DNA of 64,000 nt from Brucella grignonensis (GTDB lineage Bacteria > Pseudomonadota > Alphaproteobacteria > Rhizobiales > Rhizobiaceae), in contig NZ_NNRL01000148.1 of the NCBI RefSeq assembly GCF_002252505.1, positions 186,001 to 250,000 on the forward strand, in the 5' to 3' direction. A program made the translations under genes and the position numbers. The notes beneath the pieces are model-generated. The model saw nothing but the letters and a program-made list of their open reading frames with translations, was not told the origin of the DNA and searched no databases. Shown in pieces: positions 53,230 to 54,990 of this stretch; within the stretch, counting starts at the first letter, position 1; every line of letters starts with the position of its first letter.

Positions 53230-54297
53230 ATGTCAATCCAGCGCGTAAGTTTCTATATTCTTCTGGCTCTGGTCACTATCGCCTTCACGTGGCTGCTTAT
53301 TCCTTATTATTCTGCAGTTCTTTGGGGCGTTATCCTCGCGGTCATTTTCTATCCAGTTCAACAATGGCTGTTGCGGATTCTGCGTGGGCGACGCAATGTT
53401 GCCGCGCTGCTGTCAGTGTTGATGTGCATTTGTTTGGTGATCATTCCGACGCTTTTGATCTTTGGATCGCTGGTTCAGGAAGGCAACTCGCTCTATCAGC
53501 GACTGAGCACCCGTGAGTTCGATCTGAACAGCTACATAACCAGCATTCTGGGAGCGTTACCCGACTCCCTTGAAGAATGGATGGTCCGTTTTGAGCTTGG
53601 TAGTTTTGCGGAATGGCGTTCGCGCATTTCATCCGCCATTTTGCAAGGCAGTCAAATCTTCGCAGGCCAGTTGGTCAGCTTTGGTCAGAATACGCTTCAG
53701 TTCTTCATCAGCTTCGGCATCATGATCTATCTGCTGTTTTTCCTGTTCCGCGATGGCGCAGAGCTGGGCGCCAAAATTCGTCAGGCTATTCCTCTTACAG
53801 ATGAATATACAGGCCAGATTCTGGAAAAGTTTACCGCAGTCATCCGCGCCACTGTTAAAGGCAACATCATCATAGCGCTTATTCAAGGAACGCTTGGCGG
53901 CTTGACCTTCTGGTTTCTTGGCATTGAGGCTGCATTGCTTTGGGGGGTGATGATGACGATCTTTTCGCTGCTTCCTGTTGTCGGCGCTTCTCTCGTATGG
54001 GGACCGGCAGCCATCTGGTTTATGGTCAACGGCATCTGGATAAAGGCGGCGATCCTTGTGTTCGTAGGTGTTTTCGTAATCGGCCTGATCGACAACTTCT
54101 TGCGCCCGCCGCTGGTCGGCAAAGGCACACGTATGCCCGATTTTGTCGTACTCATCTCGACGATCGGTGGCATTTCGCTGGTGGGAATTAATGGCTTTGT
54201 GGTCGGCCCGATGATCGCCGCCATGTTTATCGCTGGCTGGTCACTCCTCGCACAAGAACAGAAGAAAGAGATCGCTCCAGAGAAGCGAGCTGACTGA
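53230..54297 (+). CDS. AI-2E-family transporter
   Basis: A 355-residue inner-membrane protein with seven to eight hydrophobic segments. N-terminal LALVTIAFTWLLIPYYSAVL, the central ATVKGNIIIALIQGTLGGLT and the later LIDNFLRPPLVGKGTRMPDF are the conserved stretches of the AI-2 exporter / PerM family. Substrate unknown despite the name. The ATG at 53230 removes a 41-residue extension encoded partly by a repeat. It converges on the small RNA at 54324. Confidence 0.88.
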   Translation: MSIQRVSFYILLALVTIAFTWLLIPYYSAVLWGVILAVIFYPVQQWLLRILRGRRNVAALLSVLMCICLVIIPTLLIFGSLVQEGNSLYQRLSTREFDLNSYITSILGALPDSLEEWMVRFELGSFAEWRSRISSAILQGSQIFAGQLVSFGQNTLQFFISFGIMIYLLFFLFRDGAELGAKIRQAIPLTDEYTGQILEKFTAVIRATVKGNIIIALIQGTLGGLTFWFLGIEAALLWGVMMTIFSLLPVVGASLVWGPAAIWFMVNGIWIKAAILVFVGVFVIGLIDNFLRPPLVGKGTRMPDFVVLISTIGGISLVGINGFVVGPMIAAMFIAGWSLLAQEQKKEIAPEKRAD

Positions 54298-54323
54298 CAA
54301 AACACTCGGGAAATGCAGGGGCT

Positions 54324-54447
54324 TAAAAACAAGAAAGCCCGCTGCACTGGGAGGAGGAGTGTGCAACGGGCTGATCTGGAAAGCGCGACTGGGAGGAGGA
54401 GTGTCGCGCTTCGCGTTCAGTTTCTGGGAGGAGGAGTGAAACTGAAC
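54324..54447 (-). ncRNA. small RNA with three anti-Shine-Dalgarno hairpin loops (alpha-r14/NfeR1-like)
   Basis: Read on the minus strand, three successive hairpins each carry the loop ACUCCUCCUCCCA. Hairpin 1 has arms GUUCAGUUUC / GAAACUGAAC (54424-54446 region), hairpin 2 GCGCGAC / GUCGCGC (around 54384-54408) and hairpin 3 AGCCCGUUGCAC / GUGCAGCGGGCU (54336-54372). Hairpin 3 is followed by UUCUUGUUUUU and is the terminator. A promoter lies at 54454-54482, so the transcript is about 123 nt. The layout matches the Rhizobiales alpha-r14 family (Smr14C2/NfeR1), known to hold CCUCCUCCC anti-SD motifs in loops. Family membership is from memory and not searched. Confidence 0.8.
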
Positions 54448-54453
54448 AAGCCC

Positions 54454-54482
54454 AAGATAGGAGCGGGACCCGCCACTTACAA
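54454..54482 (-). promoter_or_regulatory. sigma-70-type promoter of the three-loop small RNA
   Basis: On the minus strand TTGTAA (54482-54477), a 17-bp spacer and TATCTT (54459-54454). The predicted start is near 54447, just before the first hairpin. Confidence 0.65.
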
Positions 54483-54523
54483 GAGGCGATGCTGCAAGGC
54501 AGTTATGCATTTATGAATAGCTT

Positions 54524-54590
54524 AAAAAAGAAACCGCCCCGCAGCGATATACGCGCTGGGGCGGCTCTATCCTCCTCCAAGTGGAGCCGA
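54524..54590 (-). ncRNA. small RNA with a GGAGGAGGA loop and strong terminator (MmgR/suhB-like candidate)
   Basis: Read on the minus strand: a first stem-loop GGCUC / GAGCC with the loop CACUUGGAGGAGGAUA (54563-54588), then the terminator hairpin CCGCCCCAGCG / CGCUGCGGGGCGG with UUUCUUUUUU (54524-54562). The length of about 65 nt, the G-rich loop and the terminator resemble the alphaproteobacterial MmgR (formerly suhB) RNA, a match from memory. It lies 77 nt upstream of the three-loop RNA on the same strand, and its loop is complementary to that RNA's loops over 9 nt. No clear -35/-10 pair was found (TTGCTT and TTATTG with a 15-bp spacer is the best). Confidence 0.6.
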
Positions 54591-54599
54591 CAATAACGG

Positions 54600-54990
54600 C
54601 AAGAGATCAAAAAGCAACCCCTTAATATTCAACTCTAATTTTCAGAAATTACTGAAATTAATGTAGGTGTGAACACTGCTATAAAATAGCTATGAAGTTC
54701 TACTTTCGAAGTCTTCATTACCAATCTAGCATTTAGTAATTTTTTAATTGGCATGTAAAAAATTTCACTGATCATCCCGAAGCCCTATCTTCATCCGTGA
54801 AATTAATGCTCCATTCTTTAATCGATTAAACCTGCACGACGCCTAGCATTTTACAACCAATGCATACTCCTTCTCCACATTTGCATAATTAAAGTTGACT
54901 AATAATATCATGATTAATATAGCCTCCAATTAATATGAGTCTTTTTATCATCTTAATGGCATGACGGTGAAAGCCAATTCGGGGGTTGCA
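54600..54990. promoter_or_regulatory. AT-rich regulatory region of the heme receptor gene
   Basis: About 390 bp. It holds dyads such as TTTCAG-N6-CTGAAA (54640-54657) and ATGAAG...CTTCAT (about 54692-54717, with ACTTTCGAAGT inside), candidates for iron regulators (Irr, RirA or Fur), but no confident Irr or RirA consensus was found. No gene is supported. Confidence 0.4.

What the first reader, a model, noticed from the sequence alone, without database searches (positions are those of the whole stretch)
54324..54590. Two adjacent small RNAs with complementary loops: possible built-in sponge pair
On the same strand, 77 nt upstream of the three-loop RNA, a second RNA (54524-54590) exposes GGAGGAGGA in its first loop, with its own strong terminator. 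GGAGGAGGA pairs perfectly over 9 nt with UCCUCCUCC in each loop of the downstream RNA. So one RNA mimics a ribosome site and the other blocks ribosome sites, and they are encoded in tandem. Read-through past the first terminator would place both in one transcript. I know of each RNA type separately but not of a regulatory pairing between them.
Basis: inference. Interest (0 to 1): 0.72.

Follow-up and report, generated by a model that had tools for sequence, protein, structure and literature searches.

The report
Tandem small RNA and its decoy
In soil relatives of Brucella, a known small RNA that blocks ribosome sites on messages is encoded just downstream of a much shorter RNA shaped to pair with its working loops, probably a built-in decoy whose switch looks shared with a respiration operon.

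Summary
The core observation holds; some details do not. The downstream RNA (54454-54332, minus strand) is ar14/cuckoo (NfeR1 family, RF02344). Upstream lies a separate short RNA, here RNA1, probably 54582-54524, with its own promoter-like boxes, a terminator and an 11-nt seed ACUUGGAGGAG identical in 29 of 29 loci (own plus 28 relatives). Predicted pairing with each ar14 loop is -15.0 kcal/mol (0 of 120 shuffles, 0 of 160 random ends reach it).

A model of RNA1 finds 59 copies in 32 of 35 Brucella/Ochrobactrum genomes, in five seed classes; 57 of 59 lie just upstream of ar14-type loops, same strand. None of 39 ar14 loci read from other genera has it.

Unexpected: class-1 RNA1 promoters carry a palindrome 17 of 18 identical to a published footprint of CydE, a cytochrome-bd repressor. 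All 57 exact sites in the genus genomes fall at RNA1 (24) or at a GbsR-like gene (33) that in the own genome heads cydDCA.

Best reading: a CydE-linked sponge of ar14 RNAs. No expression or binding data. New variant of a known kind.

The parts
54524..54582 (-). RNA1, class 1: predicted ~59-nt RNA, 5'-ACUUGGAGGAGGA seed then intrinsic terminator
   Evidence: seed ACTTGGAGGAG identical in 29 of 29 class-1 loci, own included; found by blastn in 29 of 35 genus genomes, own included, and in 0 of 25 from other genera; fold z -3.97
54570..54578 (-). GGAGGAGGA, the nine bases complementary to UCCUCCUCC in each ar14 loop
   Evidence: net pairing -15.0 kcal/mol per loop
54524..54567 (-). intrinsic terminator of RNA1 (stem CCGCCCC...GGGGCGG, tail UUUCUUUUUU)
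   Evidence: design shared by all classes in the alignment, with changes on both sides in 3 of 15 predicted pairs
54612..54617 (-). -35-like box TTGCTT of RNA1
   Evidence: conserved block in 29 class-1 loci; coordinates read
54590..54595 (-). -10-like box TATTGT of RNA1, 16 nt from the -35-like box, 7 nt before the proposed start
   Evidence: conserved block; coordinates read. The sigma-70 scan did not list this promoter
54640..54657 (-). palindromic CydE-type operator TTTCAGTAATTTCTGAAA, -75 to -58 from the proposed RNA1 start
   Evidence: 26 of 29 class-1 loci; 57 exact sites in 33 of 35 genus genomes, all at RNA1 or a GbsR-like gene; 17 of 18 identical to a published CydE footprint
54332..54454 (-). 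ar14 (cuckoo RNA, NfeR1 family): three hairpins, each loop ACUCCUCCUCCCA
   Evidence: RF02344, 84.2 bits, E 1e-13; fold z -7.39
54455..54483 (-). ar14 promoter-like CTTGTA-N17-CTATCT
   Evidence: same layout in the 28 of 29 class-1 loci that keep ar14; resembles the CTTAGAC-N17-CTATAT signature reported for NfeR1 homologues (PMC10746234, passages). Not listed by the scan
54493..54509 (-). dyad TGCATAACTGCCTTGCA before the ar14 promoter, resembling the reported LsrB box
   Evidence: 28 of 29 class-1 loci, all that keep ar14 (in 2 of the 28 only the left half fits the pattern); LsrB box TGCA-N6-GCAT in PMC10746234 (passages)

Best explanation
RNA1 and ar14 are two separately transcribed small RNAs encoded in tandem. 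ar14 exposes three anti-Shine-Dalgarno loops that repress mRNAs by covering their ribosome sites (known for its family). RNA1 is a ~59-nt decoy: a 5' seed resembling a ribosome site, followed by a terminator whose U-tail would also suit Hfq (inference). It pairs with the ar14 loops and withdraws ar14, and probably the sibling cuckoo RNAs with the same loops, from their targets. In class 1 the RNA1 promoter has a CydE-type operator, so the decoy is predicted to be controlled together with the cytochrome bd operon, while ar14 keeps an LsrB-like box: the pair would connect respiratory state to release from ar14 repression. Shown here: sequence, conservation, tandem linkage, operator sharing. Inferred: transcription, start sites, pairing in the cell, direction of CydE control, effect on targets.
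For: Seed identical in 29 of 29 loci while the bases just 5' of it vary. Genome-wide model search: 59 copies in 32 of 35 genomes, 57 of 59 followed on the same strand by two (3 copies) or three (54) CCUCC loops. Net pairing -15.0 kcal/mol to each loop; 0 of 120 shuffles and 0 of 160 random 17-mers reach it. Over relatives, class 1 mean -12.7 against -7.0 for shuffles and classes 2/5 -12.0 against -5.8; pairing with a 16S 3' tail is weaker, -7.8 and -7.6. In one genome (G032) the neighbouring ar14 is gone while RNA1 keeps seed, promoter boxes and terminator, and four ar14 matches remain elsewhere, as expected of a trans-acting RNA. The operator is shared only with the cyd regulator gene: 57 of 57 exact sites. 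Precedent: CrfA in Caulobacter sponges four anti-Shine-Dalgarno aR8 RNAs (PMC12559287, passages).
Against: No transcript or binding data. Classes 3 and 4 carry a loop that pairs only weakly with ar14 (-7.8, 6 of 100 shuffles as good; -7.0, 39 of 250, one copy worse than its shuffles, and in several the best partner is not a loop motif), so decoy action may not be common to all classes. Class 1 has one fixed mismatch (U opposite C) to an exact antisense of the loop; 23 of 475 class-1 shuffles did as well. In the modelled 59-mer the seed partly pairs with the U-tail (3.3 kcal/mol to open). Three of 35 genomes have ar14 without RNA1 and most ar14 copies have none. The generic promoter scan listed neither promoter. 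A repressor site at -75 to -58 is unusual, and the second published CydE site was not looked for.
Confidence: 0.62

Rival explanations
1. RNA1 is an ordinary regulatory RNA that pairs with C-rich stretches of mRNAs; ar14 complementarity is a by-product of its ribosome-site-like seed, and the two are neighbours by shared ancestry of the locus.
For: Seeds differ among classes, and classes 3/4 pair weakly with ar14; class 1 has its own CydE-type operator. Two copies exist without an ar14 neighbour.
Against: 57 of 59 copies adjoin ar14-type loops and the seed fits these loops better than shuffles in classes 1, 2 and 5.
Confidence: 0.18
2. RNA1 is a leader or attenuator of ar14: ar14 pairing with the seed changes termination and so read-through into the ar14 gene (feedback).
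For: Fixed order and short distance; in the fold the seed can pair with the U-tail.
Against: ar14 has its own promoter-like boxes and dyad in the 28 class-1 loci that keep it; one relative carries a ~143-nt longer spacer and one has lost ar14 but keeps RNA1.
Confidence: 0.08
3. The seed titrates a protein that binds GGA motifs (CsrA/RsmA), like CsrB or RsmZ.
For: GGA repeats next to a stem.
Against: No CsrA (PF02599) match in the own genome, 0 of 1, while the same search rings in 3 of 14 control genomes.
Confidence: 0.02
4. The seed is the ribosome site of a tiny leader ORF, or a decoy for 30S subunits.
For: GGAGG is a perfect core ribosome-site sequence.
Against: 22 of 29 class-1 RNAs have no ATG/GTG/TTG within 16 nt after GGAGGAG, 5 have a GTG at +3 and 2 a TTG at 0. 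Mean pairing with the 16S tail (treated as fully open) is weaker than with ar14 in each class, by about 1 kcal/mol only in classes 3 and 4. The invariant UU before GG does not fit the 16S tail.
Confidence: 0.05

Closest known systems
ar14 / cuckoo RNA family (RF02344; NfeR1 of Sinorhizobium meliloti)
   Same: The downstream RNA is a member: three hairpins with CCUCCUCCC loops, a promoter layout like the reported one and an LsrB-like dyad (PMC10746234 passages)
   Different: In the 39 loci read from genera outside Brucella/Ochrobactrum there is no RNA1 upstream
CrfA sponge of SisA-D (aR8) in Caulobacter crescentus
   Same: A G/A-rich sponge pairing with the shared anti-Shine-Dalgarno motif of a family of sibling RNAs in an alphaproteobacterium (PMC12559287, passages)
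   Different: Other target family (aR8, UUUCCUCCCU); tandem encoding of sponge and target not mentioned in the passages seen; homology of CrfA and RNA1 not tested
QrrX sponge of Qrr1-4 in Vibrio cholerae
   Same: One sponge for several siblings, with a dedicated transcription factor (PMC9732341, passages)
   Different: qrrX is linked to its regulator gene qrrT; RNA1 is linked to its supposed target, and its supposed regulator lies elsewhere
CydE (GbsR-type) control of cytochrome bd in Alishewanella
   Same: Footprint core TTTCAGAAATTTCTGAAA, 17 of 18 identical to the RNA1 operator (PMC6096048 passages)
   Different: The passages seen show CydE as a repressor of the cydE-cydA-cydB operon with two sites; no small RNA is mentioned in them

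Membership tests
ar14 (RF02344) | covariance-model score above the curated cut-off | tested here: met
   84.2 against 58.8 bits
ar14 (RF02344) | three hairpins with CCUCCUCCC in every loop | tested here: met
ar14 (RF02344) | represses mRNAs through the loops | not testable with these tools
   no bench data; shown for NfeR1 according to PMC7143759 (passages)
sRNA sponge (CrfA/QrrX kind) | complementary to the target-binding site of one or more sRNAs | tested here: met
   window RNA1 and classes 1, 2 and 5; weak for 3 and 4
sRNA sponge (CrfA/QrrX kind) | expressed as an RNA of its own | tested here: inconclusive
   conserved promoter-like boxes and terminator; not listed by the generic promoter scan; no transcript data
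sRNA sponge (CrfA/QrrX kind) | binds and inactivates the sRNA in the cell | not testable with these tools
   needs binding and reporter assays
CrfA family | sequence homology to CrfA | not tested
   no CrfA sequence was compared; RNA1 has no Rfam match up to E 1 in the six loci scanned
CydE regulon | operator like the footprinted site | tested here: met
   17 of 18, 26 of 29 class-1 loci
CydE regulon | GbsR-type regulator encoded with cyd genes under the same operator | tested here: met
   own genome: MarR_2 protein (over the Pfam cut-off), weak NCBIfam match to CudC, 44.5 bits against a 218 cut-off (that CudC is GbsR-type is recalled), followed by CydD and CydC (over cut-off) and a truncated CydA-like ORF; the same short protein motif lies by the site in 33 of 33 genomes with a site; cyd genes checked in the own genome only
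CydE regulon | regulator binds this operator and changes transcription | not testable with these tools
   needs protein and reporter assays
CsrB/RsmZ-type RNA | CsrA present in the genome | tested here: not met
   0 of 1

The most novel reading that the evidence does not exclude
A heritable small-RNA/anti-small-RNA module, in which the blocker RNA and its decoy travel together as a tandem unit, has duplicated and diversified into at least five seed classes within one bacterial genus, each free to be put under a different regulator; class 1 has been taken into the CydE regulon, so that cytochrome bd induction would directly set the free level of a set of anti-Shine-Dalgarno RNAs.
Probability: 0.4. 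Interest if true: 0.75.

Novelty: new variant of a known kind. Interest (0 to 1): 0.62.

Why it matters
Cuckoo RNAs occur in several copies with near-identical loops that could pair with many ribosome sites; how a cell keeps them in check is not obvious. A dedicated decoy encoded beside the blocker, with a separate regulator, would be a simple answer and makes a direct prediction: the operator that controls cytochrome bd also controls release from ar14 repression. The genus offers natural variants (decoy without ar14, ar14 without decoy) for comparison.

Tried and rejected
CsrA titration: disfavoured, no CsrA match in the own genome. Leader ORF: no conserved start codon. Conserved 5' hairpin around the class-1 seed: rejected. 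Known RNA family for RNA1: none in Rfam at gathering in the window or up to E 1 in six loci (the weak CcsR1, potC, sX13 and anti-hemB matches lie on the ar14 hairpins). RNA1 outside the genus: of 10 genomes with a hit among 297 drawn from the family (stricter filters), 6 were the genus and 4 were not; those four loci have no cluster of CCUCC loops and look like ordinary terminators or coding DNA. Alignment A1 was made with wrong coordinate ranges and served only for a glance at the ar14 promoter. Covariation of the class 3/4 stem was not counted formally: alignment A3 put the two classes out of register.

Published description of the pair: none seen in search listings 10, 14, 50, 51, 52, 55, 74, 81 and 82 (open-licence library), nor in term look-ups in a review of Brucella small RNAs (PMC9751625: 0 occurrences of six terms) and passages plus one section of PMC3927594. 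The main cuckoo RNA paper PMC4615179 is not held.

Rows left out of counts: one search used 36 of the 46 distinct copies. One search analysed 31 copies, identical RNAs counted once and loci L173-L233 not used; 13 printed class-4 rows (some repeats) failed its pattern, and 10 of the 11 class-4 hits were analysed. The class-1 mean includes L015, which has no ar14 (its partner there is a chance stretch, -5.37). One search counts CCUCC motifs within 330 nt (250 for some short loci), not Rfam scores, and its pattern left 3 hits untyped; I read them as class 5 by eye. Of the 57 operator sites, 31 were read, 18, and 8 were assigned to RNA1 by coordinates.

Full report
What is there. The minus strand of 54297-54961, between a convergent AI-2E-type transporter gene and a divergent TonB receptor gene, carries two elements. 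54454-54332 is ar14 (RF02344), three strong hairpins with loops ACUCCUCCUCCCA. Upstream, 54582-54524, is a short RNA-like element (RNA1) with the seed ACUUGGAGGAGGA and an intrinsic terminator. GGAGGAGGA pairs perfectly with UCCUCCUCC in each of the three loops and occurs nowhere else in the window outside this locus.

Where RNA1 starts. Aligning the 29 class-1 loci (own genome and 28 others) without gaps shows three conserved blocks: GGGGTTGCTTT at -38 to -28, TTATTGT at -13 to -7, and an identical ACTTGGAGGAG from +1; the bases between -6 and -1 vary. This is the picture of a promoter and a 5' end. The generic sigma-70 scan did not list it, so the promoter rests on conservation.

A family, and a tandem. 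Blastn found RNA1 in 29 of 60 genomes, all in the genus (29 of 35, own included; 0 of 25 others). Reading upstream of other ar14 genes showed further RNAs with the same terminator design but other seeds: class 2 CUCUUGGGAGGAUUAAA and relatives, class 5 CUCUUGGGAGGGAGUUAGA, and classes 3 and 4 with UUGGGGGCUU or a close variant in the loop of a stem; in class 3 one stem shows a G-C to A-U exchange by eye. A covariance model from 36 copies was run over 35 genus genomes: 59 hits in 32 genomes. 54 have three CCUCC loops within about 310 nt downstream on the same strand, 3 have two, and 2 have no such group. The two orphans are G032, where the ar14 place is empty while RNA1 is intact (its contig length equals that of Brucella gallinifaecis NZ_ML636800.1), and G028 (class 3). 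The converse is not true: one search counts 183 ar14-type matches in 35 genomes (my sum of its rows), so most ar14 genes have no RNA1. Because the model was built from copies found next to ar14 (one orphan included), the adjacency of close copies is partly inherited; the separate seed classes at separate loci are the stronger evidence.

Spread. In 199 genomes of the order (own included), 63 have ar14 matches at E 0.001 and 29 over the curated cut-off. I fetched 39 of the listed loci from other genera and the fifth own-genome copy; none of the 39 has an RNA1-type terminator, and G-rich seed-like words within 500 nt upstream occur in four, all more than 310 nt away. The model search over 297 family genomes gave 6 genus genomes and 4 others judged false. 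A pattern scan of named genomes gave 22 records: 20 Brucella or Ochrobactrum and 2 'Rhizobiales bacterium'; no classical Brucella species is among them, but I did not verify that the collection holds one. Contig lengths tie the genus label g1 to Brucella/Ochrobactrum.

Pairing. With accessibility included, RNA1 of the window binds each loop at -15.0 kcal/mol; shuffled 5' ends average -6.0 (best -14.05) and random window 17-mers -2.65 (best -10.44). Means over relatives: class 1 -12.7 (19 copies), classes 2/5 -12.0 (7), class 3 -7.8 (4), class 4 -7.0 (10); shuffles reach the observed value in 23 of 475, 2 of 175, 6 of 100 and 39 of 250 cases (one class-4 copy, L031, was also run, -7.57, 3 of 25). 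Pairing is thus convincing for classes 1, 2 and 5 and open for 3 and 4.

Regulation. In the 28 class-1 loci that keep ar14, ar14 has its own promoter-like boxes (in the window CTTGTA-N17-CTATCT) and a dyad TGCATA..C.GC..TGCA (two show only the left half). Published work on NfeR1 reports CTTAGAC-N17-CTATAT and an LsrB box TGCA-N6-GCAT (PMC10746234, passages). RNA1 class 1 has a different site, TTTCAGTAWTTTCTGAAA or a near variant, at a fixed place in 26 of 29 loci; 15 copies of classes 2, 3 and 5 lack it. In the own genome exact matches are only two: RNA1 and a gene for a MarR/GbsR-like protein followed by cydD, cydC and the start of a cydA-like ORF. Over the genus there are 57 exact sites in 33 of 35 genomes (reversed control: 0); 24 lie at RNA1 and 33 at the GbsR-like gene. 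One of two CydE footprints in Alishewanella, TATTTCAGAAATTTCTGAAAGTTCA (PMC6096048, passages), has the same core, 17 of 18; the other site was not looked for here. This link was found by following the sequence, not looked for.

Judgement (my estimates). That RNA1 is a real conserved element linked to ar14: about 0.95. That it is transcribed as its own RNA: about 0.85. That class 1 answers to the CydE-type regulator: about 0.75. That it acts mainly as a sponge of ar14: about 0.62. Closest precedent is CrfA, a sponge of anti-Shine-Dalgarno aR8 RNAs (PMC12559287, passages); the tandem layout, the ar14 target family and the cytochrome-bd link are what differ.

Noticed in passing
54657-54640 (-) and own contig C50:273059-273076: A CydE-type palindrome occurs exactly twice in the own genome without mismatch: at RNA1 and at the cyd regulator gene; over the genus it looks like a two-promoter regulon.
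   Followed up: yes
L016 and L023-L032: In the 11 genomes with a class-4 RNA1 the same intergenic region holds two RNA1-ar14 modules (class 1 and class 4) on opposite strands, pointing away from each other, as if the whole unit had been duplicated in inverted order.
   Followed up: partly
L086, L092 (genomes G004, G026): Two of the three genomes without RNA1 have shortened anti-Shine-Dalgarno motifs in ar14 loops at the related locus (for example CUCCUCCUAAAA), while G033 keeps full loops; loss of the decoy may go with decay of ar14.
   Followed up: no
L066, L172 and similar loci: Other ar14-type RNAs with three or four hairpins follow small ORFs that look like DUF1127 genes (by eye, recalled) and have no RNA1.
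   Followed up: partly
L018 (genome G016): The spacer between RNA1 and ar14 is about 143 nt longer than elsewhere, yet both elements are intact.
   Followed up: no
own contig C60:155946-155963 (L255): A CydE-like palindrome with two mismatches lies upstream of a SCO1/SenC gene (cytochrome oxidase assembly), a possible further member of the regulon.
   Followed up: no
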